IMG/VR virus record: IMGVR_UViG_3300027847_002834
Coordinates: 62,001 to 126,000 of that record
Strand: one strand, 5' to 3'
DNA: 64,000 bases
Source of the DNA: a virus
The position numbers and the translations under genes are program-made. The notes under the pieces are model-generated. The model did not search any database. It saw only the letters and a program-made list of their open reading frames with translations, and had not been told where the DNA came from. Positions within the stretch are counted from its first letter, which is position 1, and each line of letters opens with the position of its first letter. This document shows positions 14,709 through 55,033 of the stretch, piece after piece.

Positions 14709-15305
14709 CTAGTCCTTGATTAAGGACAAAAACTCAGTTCTAGTCTGAGGTTGATTTTTAAATTTTCCTTTCATAGCTGAGGTTATCATTGAAGCATTTT
14801 GCTTCTTGACACCTCTACATATCATACAGAAATGCTGTGCTTCCATTATTACTCCGACACCATCTGGCTTTAAATACATGTCCATGGTCTCGGCAATGTC
14901 AACAGTCATTTTTTCCTGAATTTGTAATCTACTGGCAAATATATCAACAAGTCTTGCCATCTTAGATAATCCTAATACTTTTCCGTTTGGAAGATAACCT
15001 ATATGACATACCCCACTAAACGGTAGCATATGATGCTCACATATTGAAGTAAAATCAATATTTTTACACATTACTATCTCGTCAGCGAGTTCTCCCTCAC
15101 CTAAACCTTCTTGGAAGAATGTAGATAACACTGTAGAAATATCATGATTGTATCCAGCATACAATTCTATCCATGATTTTACAACCCTGAATGGGGTATC
15201 AATCAATCCTTCTCTTGTTGGATTATCTCCAATAGATGCAAGAATTGATTTAACATTATCCATTGCTCCTGGAAACTTTGCTTCTACTTCTTCTTTAGTT
15301 ATCAT
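14709..15305 (-). CDS. folE: GTP cyclohydrolase I (FolE)
   Basis: 198 aa, full length for the family. It converts GTP to 7,8-dihydroneopterin triphosphate, the first step toward folates and toward 7-deazaguanines. Zinc ligands are visible in TSICEHHMLPFSG (Cys and His) and in FCMICRGVKK (Cys); the substrate-binding KMARLVDIFASRLQIQE helix is intact. The ATG overlaps the stop of the RNA polymerase beta gene by one base, so it is co-transcribed with polymerase 1. With QueD at 33524-33964 and QueC at 5802-6725 it supplies the deazaguanine pathway. Confidence 0.96.
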   Translation of the reverse strand: MITKEEVEAKFPGAMDNVKSILASIGDNPTREGLIDTPFRVVKSWIELYAGYNHDISTVLSTFFQEGLGEGELADEIVMCKNIDFTSICEHHMLPFSGVCHIGYLPNGKVLGLSKMARLVDIFASRLQIQEKMTVDIAETMDMYLKPDGVGVIMEAQHFCMICRGVKKQNASMITSAMKGKFKNQPQTRTEFLSLIKD

Positions 15306-18300
15306 TATAATTCCTCTTTTATTTCGTAGTCTAATCCCATAGTCTTTAATTCTGATTGAAATAATCTGATTGACTGACTTACGTCATCATCATTTTCATC
15401 CAATTTCATATCATCATTTTGGATCATTTTTGAGATAGTAGCATTTCTCTTTTTGATTGAATCCGATTTAGTGGTAAGAAACTCCCACAAATTAGATTCG
15501 GCTCCATGACCTGCTACTGCCCAAACTTCCATTTCTCCTAATCTTTGTCCACCCTTTCTATTCTTGCCATCAAGCGGTTGACATGTTTTAGATGAATATG
15601 GTCCAACTCCTCTATGGGCTATTTTATCCTTTGATATATGATTCATCTTTATAAAATATTGATAACCTACTGCAATCTCATTGATTATATTCTGTTCAAA
15701 ATAAGATGGATCCTTATTGTGTTCATCATCCCCATAAGGATCATAACACGGATACTCCATTCTGGTTCCAGTATAATCCATTGCCTCTGATAATTTATCA
15801 ACTGGGGTTGATTCATACGGAGGCTGAATAACATAGAACGAATCAATATGATTGACAATATACTCTACTGATACTGCTTCTAAAAAGAGTTTCATTTGAT
15901 GAGTATACTCTTTATTTTTAGTACTATCAATAATCTTTATATAGTTTAAAATGAATTCTTTAATTTCTTCTTCTTCTTCTTTATCTTCGAACTTCTTAAC
16001 AATAATGTTTCTCATATCTTGAACGGACATTGCCATATGCAACTCAAAGAGCTGCCCAATATTCATTCTTGAAATCACACCTAATGGGTTCAGTACAACA
16101 TCTGCACTTTGACCATTTTCTAATCTAGGCATTTCATGTTCTGGAACTATCTTTGAAATGATTCCCTTGTTTCCATGCCTGTTCCCAATTTTATCACCAA
16201 CTTCAATTGGTCGTTTATACATTGCTGTTATTTCGAATCTAATCCCATCAATAGATCCACCTTTTACTTTATACGTCCCTCTCTTCTTCTCAGTGTTATC
16301 AATTGCAATTGATTCCAAGAAGTGACCTAACTGATCTTGACTAAGATACGTAGATAGGTTATCAATCATACTAGTCCGATCTTTATTCTTTTGTGCTATC
16401 AATGATGTCACGAATGTATCATATTGTGGAAACTCTTTATTCCACTTGTTAGCAAAAAGTTTTACATCAGTGATAACACAATCTTCAGTTACCACCTTTT
16501 CAAACGGTTCATCAAATATCATATCCAGACTATCATTAATACCAGTCAATGTCTTTATCTTGGCATATATGTCACCTTTAGTCAAAACATCTCCAATATT
16601 AGGAATTCCCTTATATGCAGTTTCATCATCTCCAAGATTCAGTAAAAGCTTATTTGGGGGAACTTCAAATGTCAAGTCTAAATAATGAACTGATGTCAAT
16701 TCATTGTCTTTAACCAATCTATCAGATATTACTATAGCATCTTCAAAGTTATAACCATGCCATATAGTAACAGCAGTCAATAAGTTTTTACCAACAGTAA
16801 GTCTACCTTGTTTCAAATAATTACTTTCTGCAATCATTTGATCCTTCTTGAATGTATGACCTATATCAAAATAAACATGATAAAAATCATATATAGACAA
16901 GAATAACTTTTTGTAACCAATATTAAACGCTTGACATTTCTTGTTATCAAATTGAACAACTATGACACTATCATCCTTGAATACCACAGTACCATCTCTA
17001 GAAGCGACAAAGCAGAATGAGGTATACTTGGTATACATTCCCTCCACTCCAGATTGTACTAGTGGTACATCGAAGTTTTCTAACATAATAGCATGACGTT
17101 GTTGGGAACTAGACATTTGTAATCTAGTTGGATCATCATGTTCTAAAAACGGAACATGTGATATGGCAATTGAATTTCTGCAATCACCTTCCCCTTTATT
17201 AAACGTCAAATCATTTCCAAGCTGTATTGTTGGTGTCAAATATTGAACTGTTCCACAATTTTCTCTATCCCCTGTATCCGCAGGACATACATGACTCTTC
17301 ATTGAAGGATGTATATCTCTTAGGTATGGAGGAACATTTCCCTTTTCAAATCCACCTGGCCCAGACAATGATAACCTAGTTAACATTGCTAACTCTGATA
17401 ATGGGTTGATTGAAAAGTCAAACTGTACAATTGCAGACTGATTTATATTGTTTAGTATAACTTTAGAATTATTCCGAAATCTATTCTTCTTAGATTGTCT
17501 CAATGAAACAATCATCTGGTAGAAGTCTCTAGCCAGATGAGAGTAAACTAATTGTTCAGAAAATCTAATTCGTTTATTTGAATAGTCTAAATCGTCATTA
17601 TCCCAATCTCCTAATGAGCTAATCAATTCCTCTAATACATTTGGTGTGGTGAGGAATTCCTTAGTGAAAATATCTACCTCAGATATTAGAAGAACGTTAT
17701 TAACAATATCAACGTCCTCTTTTCTATTAAAGTACTGAGATAACAATCTCTTCTTGCTTGAAGGAGAGTCAATCAAATCTTTAATATCTTGTGCCAAATC
17801 GTAATCAATAGTAACATTGGTAGATAACGAATCTTCCTTTGTTATACCAAATCTATCCTTAATCTTATCTTCTCCCAAATAAGCATAGACAAGATAACAA
17901 AACGGAACTTCCTTACCAAACAGAGTAACATAGTAAAAGTAAGGTCGTCTAAGACGTTGTTTCTTAGTTAAAGTAAAATTATGAATATTGGTCCTGAGTT
18001 TAATTATATCATTTCTTCGAATCAAAGGTCTATCAAACAATTGAAAGATCGAAACTTTTTTGTTTCCACCAATAAAGAAATGATTATCTACAAGCCAAGG
18101 AATTTCATATTCTAAATCTAACGTCTTATTATCACCATGAACCATCGAAATTTTCAATATTCGAGATATTGTTTGTTTTAATTCAGAGCGGTCAACTTTT
18201 TCTGGTCGTTCAACAGAAATAGAACTAACTCGAATACCATACTGTTCGCCACATTGCAGCATCTTAGTTATATTAGAAACAAGACTGTTTTCCCAGTCTT

Positions 18301-18364
18301 TCTGTCTAAGATCAAATATATTATGTTTACTTAATATATAATCAGGTACACATAGATTTAACAT
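15305..18364 (-). CDS. Multisubunit RNA polymerase 1, beta subunit-like
   Basis: 1019 aa (Escherichia coli RpoB is 1342), so a shortened but single-chain beta. Diagnostic segments: GDKIGNRHGNKG near residue 720, followed by EHEMPRLENGQSADVVLNPLG and SRMNIGQLFELHM, then GKNRKGGQRLGEMEVWA near 960 and HGAESNLWEFLTT. The order matches cellular beta. In phages with such polymerases beta and beta' are often split over several genes; here each is one reading frame. The start overlaps the beta' stop by 7 bases. With the 919-aa beta' it should form a host-independent transcription core. No alpha, omega or sigma was recognised next to it. Confidence 0.93.
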   Translation of the reverse strand: MLNLCVPDYILSKHNIFDLRQKDWENSLVSNITKMLQCGEQYGIRVSSISVERPEKVDRSELKQTISRILKISMVHGDNKTLDLEYEIPWLVDNHFFIGGNKKVSIFQLFDRPLIRRNDIIKLRTNIHNFTLTKKQRLRRPYFYYVTLFGKEVPFCYLVYAYLGEDKIKDRFGITKEDSLSTNVTIDYDLAQDIKDLIDSPSSKKRLLSQYFNRKEDVDIVNNVLLISEVDIFTKEFLTTPNVLEELISSLGDWDNDDLDYSNKRIRFSEQLVYSHLARDFYQMIVSLRQSKKNRFRNNSKVILNNINQSAIVQFDFSINPLSELAMLTRLSLSGPGGFEKGNVPPYLRDIHPSMKSHVCPADTGDRENCGTVQYLTPTIQLGNDLTFNKGEGDCRNSIAISHVPFLEHDDPTRLQMSSSQQRHAIMLENFDVPLVQSGVEGMYTKYTSFCFVASRDGTVVFKDDSVIVVQFDNKKCQAFNIGYKKLFLSIYDFYHVYFDIGHTFKKDQMIAESNYLKQGRLTVGKNLLTAVTIWHGYNFEDAIVISDRLVKDNELTSVHYLDLTFEVPPNKLLLNLGDDETAYKGIPNIGDVLTKGDIYAKIKTLTGINDSLDMIFDEPFEKVVTEDCVITDVKLFANKWNKEFPQYDTFVTSLIAQKNKDRTSMIDNLSTYLSQDQLGHFLESIAIDNTEKKRGTYKVKGGSIDGIRFEITAMYKRPIEVGDKIGNRHGNKGIISKIVPEHEMPRLENGQSADVVLNPLGVISRMNIGQLFELHMAMSVQDMRNIIVKKFEDKEEEEEIKEFILNYIKIIDSTKNKEYTHQMKLFLEAVSVEYIVNHIDSFYVIQPPYESTPVDKLSEAMDYTGTRMEYPCYDPYGDDEHNKDPSYFEQNIINEIAVGYQYFIKMNHISKDKIAHRGVGPYSSKTCQPLDGKNRKGGQRLGEMEVWAVAGHGAESNLWEFLTTKSDSIKKRNATISKMIQNDDMKLDENDDDVSQSIRLFQSELKTMGLDYEIKEEL

Positions 18365-21117
18365 TCTATTTCCGCCACCGGTTTATCATTTGTCATAATT
18401 TTTTCGAGAATTCCTGATGATTCCCCATCTCCAGAAATTATTCCATCTATCAAATATGATTTTGGTTTGCTGAATGCAAGTGCAAGAAGCCATGATTCCC
18501 TAGATGGGATCGACTCAATACTAACCATTTCATAATCTGTTATATCTCTTTCCGGATTAACTCTCCATCTCATTTTCCCATTACGCATCATTTGAGAGAC
18601 TATGCACTCATAATGAACCAATAGGACTAATTTATAAGCCGAGTATACACCGAATAGCTTCATAAGAGAATCGTAATAAGAATTCTTTTCACTTGCATGA
18701 AATACTTTCTTTACACGACTCAAATCATTTACAATATCTTGTTGTTGAGAAGCGTCTCCAGTTGATTTCTTTGCTGCACCTGATGTATGAAACGTTCTTA
18801 ACACTAACTGGGTTGATACTTCTCCCATTGCTTGTGCTGCAATAATGCCAATGTATTTAGAATGTAAATACTTATGACTTGACCCATAACATGTTTGACA
18901 CACGCCATGGTCTTCACAAAACAACGGAGATCGAACATGTACTAATTGTCCCAGAAATGAATGATAGTTACCATATGTAATTTCAACTAATCCATCATCT
19001 GTTACACTATACCGTCCTATTAGAGACTTTGCTAATTTCAATCCTCCATTTTCCTTCTCGGGAATATTAATTGCAAGAGTATCTACTGTACCACAATCTT
19101 CGTTTTTACCCAATTCAAGATTAACAGAACAATACACCAATTTTCTAGTTAAGTATCCAGAATCTCCAGTGTTAAGTGCTGTATCTAATAATCCTTTTCT
19201 TGAACCATAGCAAGAGATGAAAAAATCATCTCTAGTCAATCCACCAATTAGATTACTCTTAATTGGTGTTTCAATGATCTTCCCTGCAAAGTTAGAAACA
19301 AATCCTCTACACAGCACAATCTGGTTCGCTTGATCCCATGATCCTCTTGAACCCGAATCGATGAATAGGGAATAAGGGAATGCTTCTCGTACCTTCTCTT
19401 GTATTTCTGTTGATTGAATCTTAGAGAATTTATCACCCCACTCTAATTCAGGATCATCCATTATATCGGACACTATTGTATCAGCGCCTTTTAATAACAT
19501 ATTCTTTAATGACATAGTACAACCAAATCGAGATGTAGACTTAAATCCTAACACCTTTATATCGTCTAAAATATCACACACTTGATCAGAGTTTCTAGTT
19601 CTAGCCAAATCATCCAACAAAACTCTCAACAGTTTTTTATCAATTACTTCATTGATGAATGGATAATCTGGCAATATGCTATTGAATTCAACTCTTCCTT
19701 CGTATGTATCAATGCCATCTGCTATCACCTTTTTAGATTCGTCTTCTTTGGTTAAGAGATATAATCCTAAAATTATATCCTGATTAACACCAAGAATAAG
19801 ACTTCCAGTAGTTGGACAGATCAGATTGTTCTTTATAGATAACTTCTCTTTGCATTCTGCCGTGGTTTCTTCTGTCAACGGTCTATATATTGCCATTTGA
19901 TCTCCATCAAAATCTGCATTATATGGCTCGCATACCATCGGATGTATTTTAATTACATTGTCAGTATTGATTAATACATCAAATGACAATATTCCCATTC
20001 TATGTAACGTTGGTTGTCTATTAAGAATAACGGATGTACCCTCACAACAGTTCTTTACAACATCTAATAATGAGAGATCTTTAATTTTTATACATGAATC
20101 AATATGATCTATTGCTGAATCATATCGTTTGAATGTTCTCTTCTCTAGTAATTTGTTTGCTAGTTCCAATTTATACAATTCAAGTGCAAGCACATAAGGT
20201 ATAGAGCATTGATTTAATCTCAAACTAGGTTCAGGTGCAATAACTGCTCTCCCTGAAAAATCAACTCTCTTGCCCAAAATCGATCCTCTGATCAATCCTG
20301 TTTTCTTACTCAACTTCTTGAATATAAAATCATAAAGAGACGTTACATGTCGTTGAAGATTTCTAAATGTGGCTTCCCGTATTCCTGCAACCGCAGCAGT
20401 TTCTAAATGGTCGTCCTTCATTAAAATCGAGAAATTCAAGATAGTTGTTAAATATCTATTCATCTCATCTCGCATTTGAGCATCCTTTGTCTTAGACACT
20501 GGTCTAAACTCAGGTGGTAAGATAATTATATTAGACATGTAAAATTTAGACAAGTGAGTCTCAACTATTTTCCACATCGCATCTTTATCTTTCTTTCTAT
20601 CACACTCAAACTTTACGAGATCGTAAACTCCATCAACACCAATAAACACAGGTTTATCATCTGGTAATGTTGGAAGTTCCTCTTCATCTGATTCCCTCTC
20701 TTTGAATATTCGTTCAACTAATACATAACTAGCCAACTCTTCATCAAAATAATATGCATAAATCTTTTCATTAAAGAACAGATTCTCTATCATGTCCCTC
20801 ATTTTTGTCTTTCCTGCCCTAATAATTAATTGATACATAATAGGGTTTAGTATTGGAAAGGGTAACACTATTTTTGCAAATCTTTTTCGTCTCTCATTAG
20901 AATATGTAATGTCTACATCACATGTTCCACATTTATCTCCAATTCTAGATCTTCCCCAATACGTTTTACAACCACACCATGTAGTTTTGACTGGTCCGAA
21001 TATCTTTTCACTGAAAAGACCTTCTGGGTGAAATCCGTGCTTTGAATAAATTTTAGAACTTGATACTTGGGGTATACCCTCGCAGAATTCATCTACGTTA
21101 AAGAAATCTAATTTCAC
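18358..21117 (-). CDS. Multisubunit RNA polymerase 1, beta' subunit-like
   Basis: 919 aa, GTG start at 21117 behind AGGA. The catalytic magnesium loop NADFDGDQMA is at residues 400-409, with Asp402, 404 and 406. The N-terminal zinc site is present (WCGCKTYWG and KCGTCDVDI, near 47-67), as is the second zinc site CEDHGVCQTCYG. RVDFSGRAVI and NRQPTLHRMG precede the active site, and the trigger-loop region LRTFHTSGAAKKS near 775 is uninterrupted. This is a complete, compact beta'. It lies directly downstream of the E2-like gene cluster in the same orientation. Confidence 0.94.
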   Translation of the reverse strand: MKLDFFNVDEFCEGIPQVSSSKIYSKHGFHPEGLFSEKIFGPVKTTWCGCKTYWGRSRIGDKCGTCDVDITYSNERRKRFAKIVLPFPILNPIMYQLIIRAGKTKMRDMIENLFFNEKIYAYYFDEELASYVLVERIFKERESDEEELPTLPDDKPVFIGVDGVYDLVKFECDRKKDKDAMWKIVETHLSKFYMSNIIILPPEFRPVSKTKDAQMRDEMNRYLTTILNFSILMKDDHLETAAVAGIREATFRNLQRHVTSLYDFIFKKLSKKTGLIRGSILGKRVDFSGRAVIAPEPSLRLNQCSIPYVLALELYKLELANKLLEKRTFKRYDSAIDHIDSCIKIKDLSLLDVVKNCCEGTSVILNRQPTLHRMGILSFDVLINTDNVIKIHPMVCEPYNADFDGDQMAIYRPLTEETTAECKEKLSIKNNLICPTTGSLILGVNQDIILGLYLLTKEDESKKVIADGIDTYEGRVEFNSILPDYPFINEVIDKKLLRVLLDDLARTRNSDQVCDILDDIKVLGFKSTSRFGCTMSLKNMLLKGADTIVSDIMDDPELEWGDKFSKIQSTEIQEKVREAFPYSLFIDSGSRGSWDQANQIVLCRGFVSNFAGKIIETPIKSNLIGGLTRDDFFISCYGSRKGLLDTALNTGDSGYLTRKLVYCSVNLELGKNEDCGTVDTLAINIPEKENGGLKLAKSLIGRYSVTDDGLVEITYGNYHSFLGQLVHVRSPLFCEDHGVCQTCYGSSHKYLHSKYIGIIAAQAMGEVSTQLVLRTFHTSGAAKKSTGDASQQQDIVNDLSRVKKVFHASEKNSYYDSLMKLFGVYSAYKLVLLVHYECIVSQMMRNGKMRWRVNPERDITDYEMVSIESIPSRESWLLALAFSKPKSYLIDGIISGDGESSGILEKIMTNDKPVAEIEC

Positions 21118-21131
21118 GTCTAGTTCCTAAT

Positions 21132-23549: not shown

Positions 23550-23558
23550 TAATATTCC

Positions 23559-24038: not shown

Positions 24039-24085
24039 TAATAACCTCCTCTCATATATAGATATATATAGAAATAGCTTTCCAT

Positions 24086-27606: not shown

Positions 27607-27662
27607 AATCTAAAAAATTTAAACTCCTTTTTGTTTATTCTAAAAGTCGTACAATCTTATCT

Positions 27663-29277: not shown

Positions 29278-29283
29278 TATAAA

Positions 29284-31407: not shown

Positions 31408-31414
31408 ATTAAAT

Positions 31415-31448: not shown

Positions 31449-31469
31449 CTCCTCTATTTATATAATTGC

Positions 31470-39174: not shown

Positions 39175-39178
39175 ACTA

Positions 39179-39427: not shown

Positions 39428-39490
39428 AAAATTATCACCTTGTTAACAAATTAATTAATCTTATTAATAGGCCATATGTGATCTAAACTA

Positions 39491-40494: not shown

Positions 40495-40533
40495 TTAATA
40501 TATATGGACTATCAATCTAAAACCAAGTAAAGT

Positions 40534-40773: not shown

Positions 40774-40775
40774 TT

Positions 40776-41658: not shown

Positions 41659-42027
41659 ATGTCAGAAGAAACAATGGCAGTCGAAGAAGTTACAAAAATA
41701 GTCTTAGGTGACTATGGTTGGTTATTTCTAGTTGGTATCATTGTATTAATGAGCAGATCACTGATTACTAATATAGTAGCATCAATGATGATTCGTGGCC
41801 CTAAATTTTCAGAATTAGATATAATATTTATATCTGGCAGAAAAGCAATGATACTAAATATAGGAATAAGGAAAACTTCGTTTTATATGTATGATAGACA
41901 AACGTTAATGATAGTTCCTAATGAAAAATTAAATTCATTAACTATAGAAGTTGTAGCAGCAGGAATAGAATTACCTGATCGTCTTAATGGTCATGATAAA
42001 CCAAAAGACGAAGTAATTTTAGACTAA
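41659..42027 (+). CDS. Truncated MscS-like membrane protein
   Basis: 122 aa, ATG behind GCAGGAG. One membrane helix (about 19-42: YGWLFLVGIIVLMSRS...) leads into a domain like the MscS middle beta domain: FSELDIIFISG, then AMILNIGIRKTSFYMYDRQ, then LMIVPNEKLNSLTIE, matching the F..GD.I...G..G.V..I..R.T.....PN..L pattern. Mechanosensitive channels normally have three helices and a cage domain, both absent here. It may co-assemble with or disturb host MscS-type channels, or act as a membrane anchor. It is convergent with the SNF2 gene, overlapping by 4 bases. Confidence 0.6.
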   Translation: MSEETMAVEEVTKIVLGDYGWLFLVGIIVLMSRSLITNIVASMMIRGPKFSELDIIFISGRKAMILNIGIRKTSFYMYDRQTLMIVPNEKLNSLTIEVVAAGIELPDRLNGHDKPKDEVILD

Positions 42028-43940: not shown

Positions 43941-43943
43941 AAA

Positions 43944-45275: not shown

Positions 45276-45290
45276 TTTATATCTCGTTAG

Positions 45291-48200
45291 TTATCCTATA
45301 TCAGTCTCTAACATCATTCCACGCATATAAGTATCAAATAGATCCTTAGTGGGAGATGTTCTTGGGGTTCTGTATTCTGCACTTCCTGTCTGAATAATAT
45401 CAGCTACAATTTGATCTTTAGTTACATGATCATCAGCTAAAGGTCCAAAGAATTCTCTTAAAATATTAGTTGCTCCATGATTTATAATAGAATAACTATC
45501 CATCTCACCAATTCTCTGTCCTCCACCCTTACCAGACATAGCCTGTTTAGTAACAGAGCTTACCATTCCAGTTGATCTTGCTGACAATTTAATTCCACTT
45601 TGTTGTTCAAGTTTCTTGTAGTATAGGTATCCTACAGCAATATCAGTGGATGTACTTGTTCCATACTCTTTAATTTTTAATTTATATCCTTCCTTTGCAC
45701 CAACTAACCGTAAGGCAGCTCTAATATGTATAATAGTTGGCTCTTGGAATGGAGGAACAATGATAGGAATAAATCCACCTCTATCTACAACAGTTTTTAA
45801 CCATTTTTGATATGTAGCATTGGTCATTGAATTGACTGCAGTAACCACTTGTCTAGAATAGGACTTTCCTTTAGTTCCATCTAATACGCCTAACACTTTA
45901 GTAAGTAGAGCAATAGTCTTATCATTTTTTCGTGGTCCATAACCAATTATTTTAGTAGCCATGAATTTAGAAATTAAGGATAAATATAATTCTTTAATGG
46001 TTGAGGGGTTCATTCTATTTACAATAGCAATAGGATTAAGAATGATATCTACATGTTCACCCCAAGGAGTTAGTGGCATATTCTCTTCTTTTTCAATTTT
46101 AGCAATAACGCCCTTTCCACCATAGTTGTTAGTGATCTTGTCTCCAAGTTCAGCAACCTGAGTTTCTTCTATTTTAAATCTGATTAATACTCCAGAAAAC
46201 TGCTGTTTCTCAGAACCAACTCTAGCAGTAAATTTCTTTGGTGTTGCGTGACCTTGTGCTTCCTCATATTTTTCTTTATATGCAGCATGTGCCTTCTTTA
46301 ATGCAGGAAATTTACTTATAGGAGAATTTGCATAAACCTCTAGGGAAATAATCTTTCCACCTGGAGATTTTGTTATTAGCTGACCTTGCTGTATTTCATC
46401 TTCTTCGAGACCAACAACATCTTCCACTTCTTTAGAAATTCTCATTAGAAGTGGTTCGCCCCGCTTAGTCAATACTCCTTCTTGATTAATAAAACTAACT
46501 CTGTCTGTTGGTTTTACCAAAATCTCAATTTCATGATATGCTTCAGATGTTAATTTTGTTTTTGCAATTTTGTCTGAAACAATATATCCATCCTCATATG
46601 AATAACCTTTCCATGTCATAACTGCACACAATAAATTAGTTCCTACAGAAATAACGCCATCTTGAATATGTTTCCCTTCCGCAACAATCTGATTCTTTTT
46701 AACCTTCTGATTCTCAACCACAATAGGCTTGAAGTAATTTAATGCACTTTGTCCCTGACCAGCTCTTAATATCTTAGTAGCAAGAGATATAGTTTGAAGT
46801 CTACCAGATTTTAGTTTTATAACAATAGCATTAGTGGTAATACTTCTAACTATACCATCACTAATTGCTTTCTTAACATAGTTATCAGATAACATAGATG
46901 TTAATACGCTTTCATATCCAGTTTGAACAATAGGAGCTTCTTCTCCATTTATAGGAATAGCCTGCCGACCTTGGCTTCCTGCGAACATAACTCTAGCTCC
47001 ATCACAAGATCCGATAAATGGAATCATAACTGAATTTACCCCTAAGATTCCTGACTTCTCATCTCTGCCATCAGTCTTATCAACAAAGGCACCTCTAGAA
47101 TTAGTTATAGCAGCACCAACAGAAAGCTGATTAATTATTCCTACATTTTCACCTTCTGGTGTATCCATTGAATCTATATTGCCATAATATGTAGGATGAA
47201 TATTTCTAGCTTGTTTTGTTATTGCATTAGAATCTGGTATACCACCTTCACCAATAGGCTTAAGTCTAGTCAAGCATGATAATTCTTCAGTAGGATTAAT
47301 ATTCTCTAAATCATCCATCAGTTTAGAGTTAACAATTCTCTTTATAGCTTCTGTTACATCTAACTTGTATTCAGCATCTTTAAACCCTGAAATTCTACGC
47401 TCTCTGTAATCTGTATATGACCCCAAAATCAATTTCTGAATTTGGTGGGCAAATACTTCTGATGTTCTAATTCTTTGCTTAGATATATCATTTCGGTCAT
47501 CAACTCTTTCCTTTACTAACTCTTCACAAATATATAAAACAATTTGGGGATATGTAAATGGTAGAAGTTTTGATTTCAGTACTTGAGTAGCAACAGGTTC
47601 CATTATATTCTCTAATACTTGCTTTACTTTCCATGTAGAGTTTCTATTACCTGTTATTTTGATTAATGCCTGTTCAAATGTTTTTTGATCCTCTAAGTTA
47701 TCTTCTGTAAAAATATTTGGAGATTCTGCAAATGAATTTAATAAAATTCTTGCGGCATCTGTTTTATAATCTACAACAATAAAGTTACCATCACTCAATA
47801 TCAGATAATTGATTCCTTCAGGTGGTTCTGTGTCAACTATTTTATATTTAACACCAAACAATCGACATGTCTTCTTAAATCCAATGTAATAACCCATGAG
47901 AACAATTAATGGGAGTTTATATCCCCCTATCAATATCTGAAAGTATTGCTTTTTAACGGTCTTCTTGAGGTAAATAGTAGAAACGGCATATAGCGTTTCT
48001 AACTTGGCTTGTCCCTTTTTAACAAAGAAAATAGGATCTAATATGATCTGATATGTAAGATACTTCTTCTTTCCATTTATTAAAAATGTACCATCACCCA
48101 TTAGACGGGGTATTTGGATTTCTACTTCATGTTTATTTTTCTTGTCATCTTGTAATACAACAATATACCTATCATATAAAGAAGGATTCAAGTCACCAGG

Positions 48201-49490
48201 ATCAGATGGGATAGGTTCCTTTTTCATACTGAATAGTTTCAATGGATAATCTTTTTTCTCCAACAATTTAAATGAATTTAATAAATCCTTTTCAAATGAG
48301 GTAGCAAAATCTAATTGACGTTTATTTAATATATGACTAGGATCTTTATGTTCAACTAACCCATGTATATCAACTTTAGAATGAATCAAATCTCTATTAT
48401 TGTTTTGTGGTGGATCTCGTTTAACCACATCAGATAACAATTCCTTCTTAACCTGATCCAACATATACTTTCTTCGTTCAGGAACAACTGTTTCAACTGT
48501 TTCATTTGATTTTTTAAGATCTCCAGATACACTAAACAAAATAGATTTTGTTGCTAGAGTTGTCGCTGCATTCTTATCAATACTTCTAGATAAAATACTT
48601 CTCCTAACTTGAGGTGGCATTGCTTTCAGGTAATTTGCAACTGCATATCTAATAGTATCTCTTTCTTCTTCTGTTTTTTCTATAATCGGATCAACTGTTA
48701 CTGTATCTTCTGTATCTGAAATAATTTCATCAGTCGTCTTGTTATTGGGTAACTTAACAACCATGTCATCATTAGGAACTATATCAATTTTACCAACTGC
48801 CAAATCAGCAGCAGCCATTGCTTCATCTTGACTTATAAAATCAGTTTTAGTCGATATAAGGGACTTTAAGATATTTCTAATTCTTGTATAGGGGAGACTA
48901 TCATTTTCATTCCCCAACATTGAATATTTAGTTATTCCGTTTTTGATGATCGCTATTAGGAAATATTCAAAAGGATTTTCACCTTCAGTCTTTAACATTT
49001 CTAGAATTGGCCAAGCTCGTCTTTTAGTTATTCCTCTTGGTAATTCCTCATCTAGATTCACAACATACAGTAAGACTTTCTTTCGGCCTTCATGTAAGCC
49101 TCTAAGACCAGATAAATATTCCTTTATCCTTGAACTAACAACGTTTCTTCTGTAATTTCCTTTTTTGAATTTTACATCAATAGCATCCAAGTATCTAGTT
49201 AAATCAATATAAATATTATCTGCTTGACGTTGTAAATTTCTAGCTACAATTAATCCCAGCTTTCTATAAGGAAGAATTGCCTTACCATTAATCATAACTC
49301 TAGGATATCTAGACGCTATAGGAACAATCTTTCTGACATGTGTTTTCTTTATCTTAAGATGTTCATATGTTGTTATAAAATCCACATTCTCTGGATAGAA
49401 AAAAATGGAATATGAACTAGCCCGTGAATTATCAATTCCTATTTGGGCAGTAGAAAACGGGAATAATTTTAACCGATCAATAAATATCAT
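45291..49490 (-). CDS. Multisubunit RNA polymerase 2, beta subunit-like, with N-terminal extension
   Basis: 1399 aa. Beta motifs: RNIHPTYYGNIDSMDTPEGENVG (in parts), GDKITNNYGGKGVIAKI near residue 1115, NIMPLT-like EENMPLTPWGEHVDIILNP, VNRMNPSTIKELY, and SGKGGGQRIGEMDSYSI with NHGATN near 1330. Motif residues are more divergent than in polymerase 1 (YGGKG instead of HGNKG). The first about 380 residues precede the recognisable beta protrusion and contain no known domain; the stretch 230-310 is acidic and probably disordered. Downstream of the M48 peptidase and 141-aa gene, separated by 3 bases. Possible virion-packaged polymerase subunit. Confidence 0.9.
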   Translation of the reverse strand: MIFIDRLKLFPFSTAQIGIDNSRASSYSIFFYPENVDFITTYEHLKIKKTHVRKIVPIASRYPRVMINGKAILPYRKLGLIVARNLQRQADNIYIDLTRYLDAIDVKFKKGNYRRNVVSSRIKEYLSGLRGLHEGRKKVLLYVVNLDEELPRGITKRRAWPILEMLKTEGENPFEYFLIAIIKNGITKYSMLGNENDSLPYTRIRNILKSLISTKTDFISQDEAMAAADLAVGKIDIVPNDDMVVKLPNNKTTDEIISDTEDTVTVDPIIEKTEEERDTIRYAVANYLKAMPPQVRRSILSRSIDKNAATTLATKSILFSVSGDLKKSNETVETVVPERRKYMLDQVKKELLSDVVKRDPPQNNNRDLIHSKVDIHGLVEHKDPSHILNKRQLDFATSFEKDLLNSFKLLEKKDYPLKLFSMKKEPIPSDPGDLNPSLYDRYIVVLQDDKKNKHEVEIQIPRLMGDGTFLINGKKKYLTYQIILDPIFFVKKGQAKLETLYAVSTIYLKKTVKKQYFQILIGGYKLPLIVLMGYYIGFKKTCRLFGVKYKIVDTEPPEGINYLILSDGNFIVVDYKTDAARILLNSFAESPNIFTEDNLEDQKTFEQALIKITGNRNSTWKVKQVLENIMEPVATQVLKSKLLPFTYPQIVLYICEELVKERVDDRNDISKQRIRTSEVFAHQIQKLILGSYTDYRERRISGFKDAEYKLDVTEAIKRIVNSKLMDDLENINPTEELSCLTRLKPIGEGGIPDSNAITKQARNIHPTYYGNIDSMDTPEGENVGIINQLSVGAAITNSRGAFVDKTDGRDEKSGILGVNSVMIPFIGSCDGARVMFAGSQGRQAIPINGEEAPIVQTGYESVLTSMLSDNYVKKAISDGIVRSITTNAIVIKLKSGRLQTISLATKILRAGQGQSALNYFKPIVVENQKVKKNQIVAEGKHIQDGVISVGTNLLCAVMTWKGYSYEDGYIVSDKIAKTKLTSEAYHEIEILVKPTDRVSFINQEGVLTKRGEPLLMRISKEVEDVVGLEEDEIQQGQLITKSPGGKIISLEVYANSPISKFPALKKAHAAYKEKYEEAQGHATPKKFTARVGSEKQQFSGVLIRFKIEETQVAELGDKITNNYGGKGVIAKIEKEENMPLTPWGEHVDIILNPIAIVNRMNPSTIKELYLSLISKFMATKIIGYGPRKNDKTIALLTKVLGVLDGTKGKSYSRQVVTAVNSMTNATYQKWLKTVVDRGGFIPIIVPPFQEPTIIHIRAALRLVGAKEGYKLKIKEYGTSTSTDIAVGYLYYKKLEQQSGIKLSARSTGMVSSVTKQAMSGKGGGQRIGEMDSYSIINHGATNILREFFGPLADDHVTKDQIVADIIQTGSAEYRTPRTSPTKDLFDTYMRGMMLETDIG

Positions 49491-49493
49491 GTC

Positions 49494-49919
49494 TTACTTC
49501 AATTTCTTTAATGTAACAAGTCCTTTCTTTTTACTAGCAGTAAGACTCCATTTGCCTTCCAATATCTCAGACGTAAATACGAAACGTTCTGATCCTGCAT
49601 TCACATTTCCTTTCAGATTATAGCTTCCCTGTCTTGTCTTTCCTGCAAACTTAATCCGTTGTTTAAATGTTTGAGGTTTAGAAGCTGGCATTATACGGCC
49701 CATAATCTCATCCCCCTTTTTTAACAGTTCAATTGGTGTTTGAGATATGAGCATATATGACGCCCATCCGTCTGCAAGATTGGTTCCATCTGAAACTGAA
49801 TTAAAATATTTAAAATGTAAAGCTAACTCTTTCCCACTATTTGAAAAGGATATTGCTAATATATTATCCATCTTTGCTTCAAACAGAATACGTTTAATGT
49901 AAAAAAATTTATTATCCAT
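49494..49919 (-). CDS. Unknown protein between peptidase and polymerase 2 beta
   Basis: 141 aa, basic and beta-rich (FYIKRILFEAKMDN, ALHFKYFNSV, SERFVFTSEILEGKW, ending KKKGLVTLKKLK). It fits exactly between the M48 peptidase (2-base gap) and polymerase beta (3-base gap), so it is co-expressed. Features suggest a small nucleic-acid- or protein-binding domain, perhaps a virion component. No family recognised. Confidence 0.6.
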   Translation of the reverse strand: MDNKFFYIKRILFEAKMDNILAISFSNSGKELALHFKYFNSVSDGTNLADGWASYMLISQTPIELLKKGDEIMGRIMPASKPQTFKQRIKFAGKTRQGSYNLKGNVNAGSERFVFTSEILEGKWSLTASKKKGLVTLKKLK

Positions 49920-49921
49920 GG

Positions 49922-50785
49922 TTAATGTCCAATTTTCTTGTTTTTCATTGCAGATATAATTTTATCTGCTGAAATATTAAATATGCCCGCCACCTTTGTT
50001 GCTACATTTTTTGGTTTATCAATTTTTTCATTTTTCATTGATCCTCTGGCTTCTTCTATTCTTTTTCTCATATCGGGATGAGTTTTGAATATTTCAGTAA
50101 ACTTGTTAACTGCGACCATAAATTTAGACTTGGATTTATTTAAATTCATTTTGTATGCATTAGCTAGAATTTTAAATGCTTGAATTAACTCCTTTCCGTA
50201 TCCCATCTTCACAGCAAAATCATCAGCTCTATACTCAAATCGTCTTGACATATAATTAGGAACTGTGGCTACTAATAGAGCAGTGACAAACATAAAAATA
50301 CCTACTATTTTAAGGTCTTTGATATTCCCGGACTTCATGAGATCCAGTGGCTTGCCGATCTCTAAATTAAGTGACACTAACACCTGAACAAGAATAAAAG
50401 CACTAGATCTCTTAATAACATCATTATTAGTAGAATGTGCCACTTCGTGTAATAATATCGATATTGCTTGTCTATCATTAGTTAATTTTACAAGACTATC
50501 GGTTATGTACAAATTTTTACCTCCAAATGTAAACGCATTTGGGATTGGCTTTTTTCCACCACTCATGTCATCTATTTCATGAACGATCCATCCACCTTCC
50601 TTCTTTGCCTTCTTCATAATATCATTAAGAAGTTTAGTAAACTTCTTATGAATTTTAGTAGAATTTGCTAACTTAGCAGCTCGGAGCATACACACCGTAA
50701 TCATAATAACTACAAAAACAGGAGTTGCCATGAAGGTTGGACTATCCATTAACCCTTCTTTGACTTCTAAATATTTTTTATTCAT
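49922..50785 (-). CDS. M48-family membrane metallopeptidase (HtpX/Ste24-like)
   Basis: 287 aa. Zinc motif HEVAH in SILLHEVAHSTNND (near 131-144) and the third ligand Glu in FEYRADDFAVK near 188. Two hydrophobic segments, one N-terminal (ATPVFVVIMITVCML) and one before the FEYRAD motif (IVGIFMFVTALLVATV), place it in a membrane. HtpX-type enzymes cut misfolded membrane proteins. It is rare in phages. Encoded between the two polymerase 2 subunits, it could process virion proteins or act on host membrane proteins during entry. Confidence 0.88.
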   Translation of the reverse strand: MNKKYLEVKEGLMDSPTFMATPVFVVIMITVCMLRAAKLANSTKIHKKFTKLLNDIMKKAKKEGGWIVHEIDDMSGGKKPIPNAFTFGGKNLYITDSLVKLTNDRQAISILLHEVAHSTNNDVIKRSSAFILVQVLVSLNLEIGKPLDLMKSGNIKDLKIVGIFMFVTALLVATVPNYMSRRFEYRADDFAVKMGYGKELIQAFKILANAYKMNLNKSKSKFMVAVNKFTEIFKTHPDMRKRIEEARGSMKNEKIDKPKNVATKVAGIFNISADKIISAMKNKKIGH

Positions 50786-50860
50786 AATATTAAATATTCC
50801 TTATTTATTATTTTGTTCTGAGATTTAAGGTTTTATAAATATGAACCATAACCAACTGTC

Positions 50861-53800
50861 TTAAAGTGTACCATTTACCATTTGTTCCAATATGCTTTCA
50901 CTCTGGTCTCTATCATAAGTGAGACCAGTCATAACTGCTAATCCCGGATTTTCAAAACTAAGAGCAGATAACCAACTTTCCAATGAAGGTATCTTTTTAA
51001 GACTTACTACTATTGCATTATAATCTTTGTTTAATCTTGCTGGGAATGACGGGTTAGATTTATCTCGTAAAAGTTGACTTGCGAGAATTTCAAAATGAAC
51101 CATATCTGCACCTGTCATTGGGCCATACTGATCATAAATTTTCATACAAAAGTGATCGGCTGATTTCCATGGTTTCTTACCAGACAGTAAATGATTAATT
51201 ATTCTAACCTTATCTGAAAAATCAGATGTAGAAGCAGGACATGTAAATACTGCTGAGTTATCAGAAAACGGAATAGTGATTATATTACCATCATCTTGTA
51301 CTTGGCGTCCCTTCAATGGAATATGAGTATGAAAATCCAATGCACAATCAATCACAACTCTATCTTTTGTAACTATCTCAAAATAACCATACTCTAATTC
51401 AAATGTATCACCAACTTTCTTAATATCCTTTTTCGGATCTAAAAATTGATTTCTATTAATGATAATACTTCCAGATGTTTTAGTCACTAAGTCATTGATC
51501 TTTTGTGAAAACATTTTAGAGAAATACTGACTAGTCTTAACATCCATATTTGCGGTTAATGGCTTTATGATATCCACAGCAGTAACAGATATCGCTCCAC
51601 CACTATGAAATGTATTATGATTTTGAATTCCTCCCAACATATAATCTTTAGTATTGGTTTGGATATCGTATACAGGATAATCCCATTTCCAAATATCTTT
51701 TACTGTAGATACTACATCAAAGCCACGAACAGGCAAGTCTCTTCTTATTTTTATTGGTAGAATTTTACCATTTGCTTTTAGTTTTTCACTACTAAGATTC
51801 TCATTTTTTAGAAATCGTATATCAATTGCAAAATTAGGTCTTTTTTGTTTACACCCCTTAGATCCTTCTTTATCTGGAGGGACAATACATGTATTACATT
51901 TATAACCTAACTTATCACATATAGCTTTAATCTGCTGAACCAGATAATAACTACAAGTGTACACCCTGCAACACGTACTAGCTGTATTAAATACAGTCCC
52001 GTCTCCATCAATCATTCCAGATAGAAAATCTTTTAACCATGATTTACTAAAATCTATAAAATTCTCTGGGAGTCTCTTTTCCCATGCATACGAACCATAA
52101 ACAACATCATTAACATATCTATCATTATCTACAATAGTAATATATTTATCATAAACTCTAATATCATTATATTGTTTTTTCAATTCTGATATTATTCTAG
52201 GCTTTATATAATTATCATGTTGGGAGATTATGTTCCCTTTAGTATTTCTGCCTTCTCCCGCTTTACATCCTTCGGCACAATATATTCCAGCAACATAACC
52301 ACTTACACCAGGAACTACTCTCTTTTTATTATTAGATGCAATGGTCGAATCTATCCATATGGCATCATGTTTTGTTAACTCAGATGCTTCTATCTCAATT
52401 AATTCTTCATCGGTTATTGTAAATGGTGTTCGGGTAGATTGTGTTTCATTATATAATCTATCCCCAATAAGCCTACACTTGTCATTAGAATATTTTGAAT
52501 GAATAGAAGTTTTCTTGATCCATAATGGATGATTGGATTGGCACACCAACGTATGGCCACTTTTTGTAGTTATGAACATCATCTTTTCAGTAGGATCATG
52601 TTTTTGTATTGTAAGTGCCTTAACCTCTCCTTCCTTTCCTTGTACGGTAAAAGTAGATGGTAATTCTTTTGTTTCTTTTCCATCAATAATATCAATATCA
52701 GATGATACTGAATTCCATAAATCCTTAAATGCTATAAGGTTAGAATTATGATGAACTAATCCATCTGAACATTTCATAATCATCTGGGTTCCACGTTCAC
52801 CAAAGATCTGACCAGCCAATACTCCAACGTAAGGAGTTCTATTTCTTTCTAATAGATCACCATAACAAGTTTTGCATATTTTAGGAGATATACAATACAG
52901 TGGAGACTTTAAAGAAATGACTTTACCCATAGCTTTACTGGGATCTAGTTTAATAGGATTACCAACTTTATTAAGATAGTATCGGCCTTCTAATCGTCTT
53001 GCTATATCTGGAGTTACTTTTAATTGGAATCCCCGTTGGGTCTTACAATTAAAAATAGTAGGATCAGCTTCTACCCGTTGAAGTGCGAATACTAACTGTC
53101 TGCTCAAATATCCAGTATCAGCAGTATTCAATACACGATCAGCAATACCACGTCTACTTCCTGCTCCACTCATAAAGAAATCTTTACTGGTCATTCCTTC
53201 TGCATATGACTGGGCAATTGGCTCTTGGATATTCCCTTCATTATCAGAAATTAATCCTTTAGCTACAAGTATCTGTCTAGCTTGATCATAACCACCTTTT
53301 AGAACTCCAGCTTTTCCTAACGTCCCAATATTGCCATCTTTCTTTTCTAAATGAGCACCAATATCAACAGTGGATTGTTGAATTATTCTATCAGCCTCTT
53401 GTGGTGATTTTCCTACTAATTGTTTTTTAGCATCGACAATAGATTTTGGAATTTCAAGGTCTTCAAGGCCAAATGAAGGAGAACCAATTGTTCCATACTT
53501 ATAAGATATTTTTAATATCTTATCAGCCCAATCAACATATTTTTCTCTTCCATATGTTATAAAGTATTCATTAGCTATATTGTTTAGCTTCTTCTGATTC
53601 ACTTGTTCATTTATAAATGTATGACCATCAGGAAAGATATCATTAAACATAATCCTTCCAACTGTGGTATCAAGTGTTCCATACTTTACTTTATCATTAA
53701 TAGGCAATCCTTTTAACTGTCCAGGTCTAGTTACCCTTACTGCCGCCTTTCTAGACTTCGAATCCTTAGTAAGCAAATAGATACCAATTGCACTATCTTT

Positions 53801-55033
53801 ATCAAACGAATCACTAATTTGATTTATTGAGTCCTTTGATGTGGTGACCATCATCTTGTCCTTTGCTTCCTCAATAGCCTGTCTAGTTATTGGGACATAG
53901 ACTGCCATTTGATCCCCATCAAAGTCTGCATTATAAGCTGAACATTTCATGGGATTAATTCTAATGGTATTTCCGTCTACTAATACAGGTTTAAATGCTT
54001 GCACCGATTCAGCATGGAGACTAGGATCTCTTTTTGCTAATACAATTTTATCTTTGATTGCATTATTTGTTGAAACTACTAATATGTCATATAACTCTTG
54101 AGATATTTCATCATGCTTTGATATTGCAATGAATAGTCTTCTTAGACTTAATGCAGATAATTTACTTCCGTCAAAACGTTCTAATGCATCAGAAAGCTGT
54201 TCTTTTGGTATATTTCCACTATTCAATAAATCAAATATAATAAATGGTTCAAATAGTTTAACAAGAAGCCTTAATGGTATTCCTAATTCGTCTGCACGTA
54301 GTTCGGATGCAGCTCCAGATATAACTGCCCTAGCTGTAAAATCTACTCTCTTACCCAATAAATCACTTCTAAGTAATCCTTTCTTCTTAGAGACTTTACT
54401 TGTAAGATAATTGTATAATTCGAGTACTAACTCATGCATTCTAAATGCTAATACATCATATACGGGTCCTGATGTTTGTGTTCTTAATTGTAATGACAAT
54501 CTAAGAATTTTAAGGTAGTAATCATTTAAAGGATTAACTGTAATATCCCCAGTATCAGTGATCTCAAGTTGTCTATAATCTGGAGGAATAATGATACACT
54601 TATCAGTAAATGCATGTCCTTTCTTTGTATAGAAATCAACCATTCCAATTAAATCAGCTCTCGATTTTGAATCTGCTGAAAATTTTATTTTTGACCAATT
54701 ATCAACCACTGAAGACATTCCCGTTATCTCACCATCCTCATCAAGAATCAATTCACCGTTCTGTAGAGTAAATGTTTTCTCTCCTGACATTGCAGTTATA
54801 ACAGATCTCTTTAATCTCCTTATAGTACCAAATAACGCTGGATGTAAAACATTACAATTTAAATCAATGAAAGAATATATTTTTCTTCTATCTGAAGTAT
54901 CAACTGCCCCAAAGATCTTTTCAGAGAAAAATCCTTCGGGGTGAAATGTTGTAGTTTTTCCTACGAAATATTCAGTAGATGTAACAGGAACTAATTTAGA
55001 TGTCTCCTTATCTATATTCAACAATTTTAGCAT
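50861..55033 (-). CDS. Multisubunit RNA polymerase 2, beta' subunit-like, intein-containing
   Basis: 1390 aa as translated, about 1004 aa after intein removal, close to the 919 aa of polymerase 1 beta'. The catalytic loop NADFDGDQMA is at residues 368-377 (Asp370, 372, 374), with RVDFTARAVISG before it and a zinc site CISPKICKTCYG after it. The N-terminal zinc ribbon present in polymerase 1 is missing. The trigger-loop segment GTQMIMK...TFHSGGA is interrupted after Lys754 by an intein ending at Asn1140. Precedes M48 peptidase in the operon and pairs with the beta at 45291-49490. Confidence 0.93.
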   Translation of the reverse strand: MLKLLNIDKETSKLVPVTSTEYFVGKTTTFHPEGFFSEKIFGAVDTSDRRKIYSFIDLNCNVLHPALFGTIRRLKRSVITAMSGEKTFTLQNGELILDEDGEITGMSSVVDNWSKIKFSADSKSRADLIGMVDFYTKKGHAFTDKCIIIPPDYRQLEITDTGDITVNPLNDYYLKILRLSLQLRTQTSGPVYDVLAFRMHELVLELYNYLTSKVSKKKGLLRSDLLGKRVDFTARAVISGAASELRADELGIPLRLLVKLFEPFIIFDLLNSGNIPKEQLSDALERFDGSKLSALSLRRLFIAISKHDEISQELYDILVVSTNNAIKDKIVLAKRDPSLHAESVQAFKPVLVDGNTIRINPMKCSAYNADFDGDQMAVYVPITRQAIEEAKDKMMVTTSKDSINQISDSFDKDSAIGIYLLTKDSKSRKAAVRVTRPGQLKGLPINDKVKYGTLDTTVGRIMFNDIFPDGHTFINEQVNQKKLNNIANEYFITYGREKYVDWADKILKISYKYGTIGSPSFGLEDLEIPKSIVDAKKQLVGKSPQEADRIIQQSTVDIGAHLEKKDGNIGTLGKAGVLKGGYDQARQILVAKGLISDNEGNIQEPIAQSYAEGMTSKDFFMSGAGSRRGIADRVLNTADTGYLSRQLVFALQRVEADPTIFNCKTQRGFQLKVTPDIARRLEGRYYLNKVGNPIKLDPSKAMGKVISLKSPLYCISPKICKTCYGDLLERNRTPYVGVLAGQIFGERGTQMIMKCSDGLVHHNSNLIAFKDLWNSVSSDIDIIDGKETKELPSTFTVQGKEGEVKALTIQKHDPTEKMMFITTKSGHTLVCQSNHPLWIKKTSIHSKYSNDKCRLIGDRLYNETQSTRTPFTITDEELIEIEASELTKHDAIWIDSTIASNNKKRVVPGVSGYVAGIYCAEGCKAGEGRNTKGNIISQHDNYIKPRIISELKKQYNDIRVYDKYITIVDNDRYVNDVVYGSYAWEKRLPENFIDFSKSWLKDFLSGMIDGDGTVFNTASTCCRVYTCSYYLVQQIKAICDKLGYKCNTCIVPPDKEGSKGCKQKRPNFAIDIRFLKNENLSSEKLKANGKILPIKIRRDLPVRGFDVVSTVKDIWKWDYPVYDIQTNTKDYMLGGIQNHNTFHSGGAISVTAVDIIKPLTANMDVKTSQYFSKMFSQKINDLVTKTSGSIIINRNQFLDPKKDIKKVGDTFELEYGYFEIVTKDRVVIDCALDFHTHIPLKGRQVQDDGNIITIPFSDNSAVFTCPASTSDFSDKVRIINHLLSGKKPWKSADHFCMKIYDQYGPMTGADMVHFEILASQLLRDKSNPSFPARLNKDYNAIVVSLKKIPSLESWLSALSFENPGLAVMTGLTYDRDQSESILEQMVNGTL
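51614..52771 (-). mobile_element. LAGLIDADG-type intein in the polymerase 2 beta' subunit
   Basis: 386 residues, from Cys755 (CSDGLVHHNSN) to Asn1140, followed by Thr as the +1 residue. Block B is HTLVCQSNHPLW (near 827-838), block F is PVYDIQTNTKDYMLGG and block G is IQNHN, so splicing residues Cys1, His, Asn and Thr+1 are present. Two homing endonuclease motifs are GYVAGIYCAEG (912-922) and FLSGMIDGDG (about 1001-1010). Block A is unusual. The insertion point is in the invariant trigger-loop region of beta', a functionally essential site. Confidence 0.9.

What the first reader, a model, noticed from the sequence alone, without database searches (positions are those of the whole stretch)
15305..55033. 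Two separate multisubunit RNA polymerases, each with single-chain beta and beta'
Set 1 (15305-21117) and set 2 (45291-55033) both carry NADFDGDQ active sites and complete beta motifs. phiKZ-like phages also have two polymerases but with beta and beta' split over several genes. Unsplit, compact versions (1019+919 and 1399+about 1004 aa) may be closer to the ancestral state. No alpha, omega or sigma is recognisable nearby.
Basis: partly seen in the sequence, partly recalled or inferred. Interest (0 to 1): 0.8.

Follow-up and report, generated by a model that had tools for sequence, protein, structure and literature searches.

The report
Phage with two unsplit RNA polymerases
This uncultured bacterial virus carries two complete RNA-copying enzymes of the bacterial type plus a sigma-like start factor, each enzyme still made of whole subunits, which suggests that the fragmented twin enzymes of the giant phages phiKZ and AR9 came from whole ones already present as a pair in an older phage.

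Summary
The window, from a 193.5-kb IMG/VR virus, encodes two beta/beta' pairs. Set 1 is 1019+919 aa. Set 2 is 1399 aa plus a 1390-aa beta' ORF that holds a 386-aa intein in its trigger loop (1004 aa without it).

The arrangement is widespread: 25 of 32 related contigs carry both sets. Set 1 belongs to a broad family of unsplit phage polymerases, probably the 'mReC' lineage published in 2020. I found no paper reporting the second set.

Each set is monophyletic and neither nests inside the split-subunit lineages. In concatenated trees set 2 is sister to the virion RNAPs of phiKZ/AR9-type phages (96/98; 100/99 without phiKZ-type rows). Set 1 leans towards the non-virion RNAPs (74/57; 87/78). A recent set 1/set 2 duplication is rejected (p-AU 0.025, 0.007). 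So both polymerases probably existed, unsplit, before the jumbo-phage splits; splitting recurs inside set 2.

The 'no sigma' remark needs correcting. A 468-aa ORF (57223-58629), with no sequence match, folds like AR9 gp226 and phiKZ gp68, the sigma-like subunits of non-virion RNAP (Z 19 and 9).

Virion packaging, and which enzyme uses this factor, remain untested.

The parts
18358..21117 (-). Set 1 RNAP beta' (919 aa), NADFDGDQM active site, N-terminal Zn ribbon; nvRNAP-like / mReC-type
   Evidence: Pfam Rpb1_2 E 2.7e-33, Rpb1_5 1e-26; Zn ribbon in 10/10 set 1 members; trees
15305..18364 (-). Set 1 RNAP beta (1019 aa)
   Evidence: Pfam Rpb2_6 E 1.7e-51, Rpb2_7 4.5e-16, Rpb2_3 4.1e-9; intact single ORF in 79 of 79 loci
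50861..55033 (-). Set 2 RNAP beta' ORF (1390 aa; 1004 aa after intein removal), no Zn ribbon; vRNAP-like
   Evidence: Pfam Rpb1_2 E 4.5e-31; sister to vRNAP 96/98 and 100/99; profile score to vRNAP 609 against 418 for set 1
51614..52771 (-). Intein in the trigger loop of set 2 beta' (386 aa; ...GTQMIMK|CSDG...QNHN|TFHSGG...), with LAGLIDADG-like endonuclease motifs by eye
   Evidence: Pfam Intein_splicing E 5e-4; junctions; NCBIfam A'' profile match across the upstream junction
45291..49490 (-). Set 2 RNAP beta (1399 aa), with ~350-aa extra N-terminal region
   Evidence: Pfam Rpb2_6 E 7.8e-37; profile-profile with vRNAP beta E 1.6e-60 over 983 columns
57223..58629 (+). Predicted sigma-like promoter-specificity subunit (468 aa), AR9 gp226 / phiKZ gp68 fold
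   Evidence: AF2 pLDDT 78.9; Foldseek 7S01_A E 1.5e-5, 7UM0_A 2.8e-4, 8QUE_B 1.5e-3; VIA Z 19.2 over 410 residues; single copy in 17 of 19 two-RNAP records
49922..50785 (-). M48-family zinc peptidase gene between set 2 beta' and beta
   Evidence: Pfam Peptidase_M48 E 1.8e-22; found in only 2 of the 26 set 2 loci compared
49494..49919 (-). Unknown 141-aa ORF between set 2 beta' and beta
   Evidence: no Pfam or PHROG match
43944..45275 (-). AAA ATPase downstream of set 2 beta
   Evidence: phrog_1250 E 2.2e-22, phrog_168 clamp loader E 5e-4; Pfam AAA E 0.002
42024..43940 (-). SNF2-type helicase downstream of set 2 beta
   Evidence: Pfam SNF2-rel_dom E 9.3e-18, Helicase_C 3.8e-13

Best explanation
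The virus encodes its own transcription system: two alpha-less multisubunit RNAPs, each built of an essentially unsplit beta and beta', and one sigma-like promoter factor. Set 2 is the orthologue of the virion RNAP of phiKZ/AR9-type phages. Set 1 is probably the orthologue of their non-virion RNAP. Both were present, unsplit, in a common ancestor; the jumbo-phage forms were later cut into 4-5 genes. Expected working: one enzyme (by orthology set 2) is packaged and transcribes early genes, including those of the other enzyme and of the sigma-like factor. The second enzyme with that factor transcribes middle and late genes. The set 2 beta' precursor must lose its intein by protein splicing before the trigger loop, and so the enzyme, can work. 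Shown: genes, intactness, conservation, absence of a detectable alpha domain, predicted fold of the factor. Supported: S2-vRNAP kinship. Weaker: S1-nvRNAP kinship. Inferred: packaging, temporal roles, splicing, which enzyme uses the factor.
For: Both sets complete and recurrent in 25 of 32 related records. Set 1 intact in 79/79 (beta) and 78/79 (beta') loci, the exception being cut by its contig. Concatenated trees: S2+vRNAP 96/98 and 100/99 without phiKZ-type rows; S1+nvRNAP 74/57 and 87/78. AU test rejects S1+S2 as one clade (p 0.025; p 0.0074) and, in the reduced set, v+nv (p 0.040). Profile-profile scores: vRNAP nearest S2, nvRNAP nearest S1, for beta and beta'. N-terminal Zn ribbon: 10/10 set 1, bacteria, phiKZ and EL-like nvRNAP have it; 0/12 set 2 and 0/7 vRNAP. 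Gene order beta'->beta is shared with the phiKZ, sm033 and EL-like vRNAP clusters. Sigma-like factor: top three PDB matches are AR9 gp226 and phiKZ gp68. No bacterial alpha domain or Sigma70_r4 in the genome, with working controls.
Against: v+nv as one clade is not rejected when phiKZ-type rows are included (p 0.154), and the beta' tree alone leaves the order of the four groups open. Jumbo-phage branches are long and the root relies on bacteria; no archaeal rows were used. Part of the nvRNAP group (AR9-like) also lacks the Zn ribbon. The sigma-like gene lies beside set 2, whereas its homologues belong to non-virion RNAP, so roles could be swapped or the factor shared. The set 2 beta N-terminal region is not detectably related to that of vRNAP. 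No proteomics, and the record is not shown to be complete.
Confidence: 0.66

Rival explanations
1. Two independent acquisitions: set 1 and set 2 were taken from (proto)bacterial hosts separately, and their resemblance to the nv/vRNAP pair reflects long-branch effects.
For: Groups are very divergent; S1 scores almost as high against bacteria as against S2 (1022 against 1139). The order of the four groups is unresolved in the beta' tree alone.
Against: S1, S2, v and nv fall on one side of a 99/98 branch, with bacteria and single-RNAP phages on the other. S2+v is starred in both concatenated trees. Zn-ribbon and profile patterns agree.
Confidence: 0.15
2. Recent gene duplication inside this phage lineage: set 2 is a paralogue of set 1, unrelated to the phiKZ-type pair.
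For: S1 and S2 are each other's best profile matches by raw score, expected anyway since both are less diverged than v and nv.
Against: AU test rejects S1+S2 (p 0.025 and 0.0074). S2+v supported 96/98 and 100/99.
Confidence: 0.06
3. Secondary fusion: the ancestor had split subunits, as argued for jumbo phages by Iyer et al. 2021 (PMC7824862), and sets 1 and 2 re-joined them.
For: Set 2 beta' needs at least 3-5 split/unsplit changes on its own tree, so joins may happen.
Against: Bacteria, all set 1 members, TM30, Carin-5, Va2, V1031 and the two deepest set 2 members (window, G009) are unsplit. The common v/nv beta' split (after the DPBB) differs in place from the set 2 split. HNH genes sit between beta'N and beta in phiKZ and EL-like vRNAP clusters, as if they had displaced the rest of beta'.
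Confidence: 0.08
4. Roles are swapped or shared: the set 2 enzyme works with the gp226-like factor as the late or main polymerase, and set 1 is the virion enzyme or a second late enzyme. (This concerns function, so it can hold together with the ancestry proposed above.)
For: The sigma-like gene lies just upstream of set 2 beta' in most relatives, is single copy, and its homologues are nvRNAP subunits.
Against: Sequence kinship of set 2 is with vRNAP. Gene neighbourhood is weak evidence in these genomes; the factor lies 13-58 kb from set 2 beta' in G010, G023 and G029.
Confidence: 0.25

Closest known systems
Virion and non-virion RNAPs of phiKZ / AR9 jumbo phages (PMC7598289, PMC9209446)
   Same: Two distinct multisubunit RNAPs per phage, no alpha found, a gp226/gp68-type sigma-like factor, probable split family-B DNA polymerase, SNF2-type helicase
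   Different: [quoted passage not shown] here they are single chains, except recurrent splits of set 2 beta' in relatives. The capsid protein here is of the Gp23 type.
mReC, multi-subunit-RNAP-encoding Caudovirales (Weinheimer & Aylward 2020, PMC7481178)
   Same: Metagenomic tailed phages with unsplit beta/beta', NADxDGD motif, Gp23 (PF07068) capsid protein; set 1 is very probably this family
   Different: The parts of the paper read here mention neither a second RNAP nor a promoter factor nor an intein, and it does not include phiKZ-type RNAPs
AR9 gp226 / phiKZ gp68 promoter-specificity subunits
   Same: Overall fold of the 468-aa ORF; Z 19.2 over 410 residues with 7S01_A
   Different: 11-13% identity; the AR9 genome is not hit by the family's sequence profile; encoded next to the vRNAP-like set
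Cultured phages with one unsplit RNAP (Cobetia phage Carin-5, Rhizobium phage RHph_TM30, Vibrio phage Va2)
   Same: Single-chain beta' (and beta where found)
   Different: One RNAP place found; they group with bacteria in the beta' tree, apart from sets 1 and 2
Archaeal RNAP A'' intein
   Same: Insertion in the trigger-loop region; NCBIfam PRK14898 matches across the upstream junction
   Different: Host protein is a phage vRNAP-like beta'; relative G021 has a split version

Membership tests
phiKZ/AR9-type two-RNAP jumbo phage | Two different multisubunit RNAPs in one genome | tested here: met
   recurrent in 25/32 relatives
phiKZ/AR9-type two-RNAP jumbo phage | beta and beta' split over several genes | tested here: not met
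   single ORFs; set 1 intact in 79/79 beta and 78/79 beta' loci
phiKZ/AR9-type two-RNAP jumbo phage | One RNAP akin to vRNAP, the other to nvRNAP | tested here: inconclusive
   S2+v 96/98 and 100/99; S1+nv 74/57 and 87/78
phiKZ/AR9-type two-RNAP jumbo phage | gp226/gp68-type promoter-specificity subunit | tested here: met
   fold match
phiKZ/AR9-type two-RNAP jumbo phage | No alpha subunit or canonical sigma | tested here: met
   PF01000 and PF04545 absent with working controls, within the 193.5-kb record held; omega not tested
phiKZ/AR9-type two-RNAP jumbo phage | One RNAP packaged in the virion | not testable with these tools
   needs virion proteomics
phiKZ/AR9-type two-RNAP jumbo phage | phiKZ-type major capsid protein, chimallin | not tested
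   a Gp23-type MCP was found; a phiKZ-type MCP and chimallin were not searched
mReC (PMC7481178) | Unsplit beta and beta' of at least 800 aa with NADxDGD | tested here: met
mReC (PMC7481178) | Gp23-type (PF07068) major capsid protein | tested here: met
   E 1.8e-31 at G000:179057-180214
mReC (PMC7481178) | RNAP falls in the published mReC clade | not tested
   the paper's own sequences were not at hand; set 1 has more than 170 IMG/VR relatives
Intein | In-frame insert at a conserved site, Cys start, HN end, nucleophile after it | tested here: met
   Pfam splicing domain E 5e-4, below the curated cut-off
Intein | Protein splicing activity | not testable with these tools
   needs expression
AR9 gp226-type subunit | Same overall fold with sigma2-like domain | tested here: met
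   Z 19.2 over 410 residues with 7S01_A; sigma region 2 matches Z 5-6.7 at residues 110-250; model pTM 0.52
AR9 gp226-type subunit | Binds an RNAP core and confers promoter specificity | not testable with these tools
   needs biochemistry

The most novel reading that the evidence does not exclude
This lineage preserves the state before fragmentation of the jumbo-phage transcription system: one ancestral phage already carried two diverged, unsplit, alpha-less RNAPs plus a sigma-like factor. The 4- and 5-piece enzymes of phiKZ/AR9 arose from it by gene breakage, perhaps helped by inteins and homing endonucleases. The present intein, the split intein of relative G021 and the recurrent beta' split near the same loop would be visible stages of that process.
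Probability: 0.4. Interest if true: 0.85.

Novelty: new variant of a known kind. Interest (0 to 1): 0.7.

Why it matters
Reviews up to 2026 (PMC7598289, PMC13282480) state that it is unknown whether vRNAP and nvRNAP arose by duplication or by two acquisitions, and one analysis (PMC7824862) argues that the split form predates LUCA. Phages with both enzymes unsplit give a missing intermediate group. They place the two-enzyme state before the splitting, make the split-first view less likely, and supply two-chain enzymes with a candidate initiation factor that can be expressed to test how an RNAP assembles without alpha.

Tried and rejected
Set 2 as a recent copy of set 1: rejected by the AU test. 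Secondary fusion inside split lineages: no nesting in any tree. The direct link 'intein site = split site': the recurrent split in nine relatives lies about 25-35 residues after the intein site, so it is near but not the same. Shared N-terminal extension of set 2 beta and vRNAP beta as a common trait: no detectable homology (hhalign E 0.2). phiKZ gp68 by its PHROG profile in the genome: no match, and no control rang, so uninformative; structure was needed. The S1-linked 236-aa conserved protein as an RNAP subunit: its fold matches the family-B DNA polymerase palm. Scan of IMG/VR with P0004 alone found nothing, probably because the peptide patterns used were poorly conserved. A first single-gene beta' tree mixed the MarsHill nvRNAP with vRNAP, where only its N part was used. 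An IQ-TREE run timed out. Several 'phage' records that matched set 1 beta' best look like bacterial rpoC contamination and were left out.

Full report
What is there. The window is bases 62001-126000 of a 193,518-base IMG/VR virus record. On the minus strand it holds two beta'-beta pairs. Set 1 is beta' 18358-21117 (919 aa) followed by beta 15305-18364 (1019 aa). Set 2 is beta' 50861-55033, two small genes (an M48 peptidase and an unknown ORF), then beta 45291-49490 (1399 aa). Pfam recognises Rpb1 and Rpb2 domains in all four proteins. Both beta' carry NADFDGDQM.

The intein. The set 2 beta' ORF is 1390 aa. Residues 755-1140 interrupt the trigger loop (GERGTQMIMK|CSDG...NHN|TFHSGGA). They match the Pfam intein splicing domain (E 5e-4). 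An NCBIfam profile of archaeal subunit A'', whose length suggests an intein, matches across the upstream junction (residues 736-1035). In relative G021 (locus L188) the same site is occupied by what looks like a split intein. One gene ends 'MK|CSTGLV...' after about 24 intein residues. Then comes a 572-aa gene with a Vsr-like nuclease domain (E 0.0012, below the curated cut-off), then a gene that begins inside the intein and continues into the C-terminal extein. This resembles the 'fractured genes' with split inteins known from phage metagenomes (own knowledge, not looked up).

How common. A scan with set 1 beta' found 173 relatives in IMG/VR. Of 32 such records searched whole, 25 also carry a set 2 beta scoring over 500 bits. 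The seven without it are fragments of 51-113 kb. Two pairs of these records look near-identical (G008/G030, G012/G026), so the number of independent cases is slightly lower. Set 1 is a single ORF in all complete loci. Set 2 beta' is unsplit in 15 relatives, in two adjacent genes (about 782 + 235 aa) in nine, and in three pieces in G021; set 2 beta is split in G021 and G027 only. On the set 2 tree the two states of beta' need at least 5 changes, 3 of them forced by well-supported branches. The nine two-piece genes all break about 25-35 residues after the intein site.

Kinship. References were vRNAP and nvRNAP of phiKZ, AR9/Goe21, phiR1-37, S6/MarsHill, LPJP1, sm033 and an EL-like phage, with bacteria from 80 loci. 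In the beta' tree set 1, set 2, v, nv and bacteria are each monophyletic (at least 100/99). Bacteria plus single-RNAP phages separate from the rest at 99/98, but the order among the four groups is open. The beta tree groups set 2 with v (plus a long Carin-5/YerA41 branch) at 82/94. Concatenated (1410 columns), set 2 + v has 96/98 and set 1 + nv 74/57. Without the long phiKZ-type rows the values are 100/99 and 87/78. Holding set 1 and set 2 together is rejected (p-AU 0.025; 0.0074). Holding v and nv together is not rejected in the full set (0.154) and just rejected in the reduced set (0.040).

Independent traits. Profile-profile scores pair v with set 2 and nv with set 1 for both subunits. The N-terminal Zn ribbon of beta' is present in set 1, bacteria and the phiKZ and EL-like nvRNAP, absent in set 2 and all vRNAP, and absent in AR9-like nvRNAP too (compare PMC7824862 and PMC12809450). 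The order beta'->beta with a gene between recurs in the phiKZ and EL-like vRNAP clusters, where that gene is an HNH endonuclease. This order is also seen in set 1, so it is weak evidence.

The sigma-like factor. The 468-aa ORF at 57223-58629 matches no Pfam or PHROG family, yet its family sits just upstream of set 2 beta' in most relatives. It occurs once in 17 of 19 two-RNAP records; in the two without it the contig ends at or near set 2. An AlphaFold model (pLDDT 78.9, pTM 0.52) has as its only significant PDB matches AR9 gp226 (7S01_A, 7UM0_A) and phiKZ gp68 (8QUE_B) (chain identities checked). VIA-align gives Z 19.2 over 410 residues to gp226 and about 9 to gp68, then bacterial sigma region 2 at Z 5-6.7. 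The high rmsd to gp226 suggests that domains are placed differently. In AR9 and phiKZ this subunit belongs to the non-virion enzyme (PMC9209446, PMC12809450), while here the gene neighbours the virion-like set. I therefore do not assign it to one enzyme.

Other context. The genome has a Gp23-type capsid protein, as described for mReC. It has no detectable bacterial alpha domain or sigma region 4. [quoted passage not shown]

Verdict. Two complete unsplit RNAPs and a predicted sigma-like factor are shared by a wide uncultured phage lineage. The published mReC work, as far as read here, covers one polymerase; I found no account of the second, of the factor, or of the link to the v/nv pair (literature searches). 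The best-supported history is two unsplit enzymes in a common ancestor, split later. Deep branching is hard and packaging is untested.

Noticed in passing
L188:2771-7835 (G021): Set 2 beta' broken by a putative split intein: gene ending in ~24 intein residues, then a 572-aa gene with weak Vsr-like nuclease match, then C-intein fused to the beta' C-terminus.
   Followed up: partly
L172, L175, L183, L184, L185, L190, L191, L161, L162: Set 2 beta' recurrently split into adjacent 782 + 235 aa genes just after the trigger loop; at least 3-5 changes on the tree.
   Followed up: yes
L195:4944-11995 (Vibrio phage D69): One chain of about 1530 aa fuses beta to the N-terminal half of beta'; the rest of beta' is in a separate gene.
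   Followed up: no
AR9 NC_031039 99709-100455 (gp124): A 'virion structural protein' matches the C-terminal end of beta' (E 9e-6), probably the small fifth vRNAP subunit like SPN3US gp244.
   Followed up: no
window 28507-31407: ThiF/E1-like gene (Pfam E 5e-22) next to a 707-aa protein with weak ubiquitin-conjugating (E2-like) similarity: a possible ubiquitin-like conjugation pair in a phage.
   Followed up: no
window 5802-6725, 8032-8907, 14709-15305: QueC-like, glutamine amidotransferase-like and FolE genes: a possible 7-deazaguanine DNA modification pathway.
   Followed up: no
window 38122-39174: Radical SAM protein with weak similarity to viperin and peptide maturases.
   Followed up: no
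window 13153-13863: 236-aa protein conserved in 49 of 78 set 1 loci; AlphaFold model (pLDDT 92) matches the palm region of family-B DNA polymerases, so probably one piece of a split polymerase.
   Followed up: partly
L011 (IMGVR_UViG_3300009786_000012): A 64.5-kb contig from another metagenome carries set 1 beta' 100% identical to the window's.
   Followed up: no
phage records OR849902, OR844998, OR846602, CAKLQH020000005, AFYI01000006: Match set 1 beta' at 28-29% over about 80%, some with annotated rpoB/rpoC: look like bacterial rpoC in records filed as phage.
   Followed up: no
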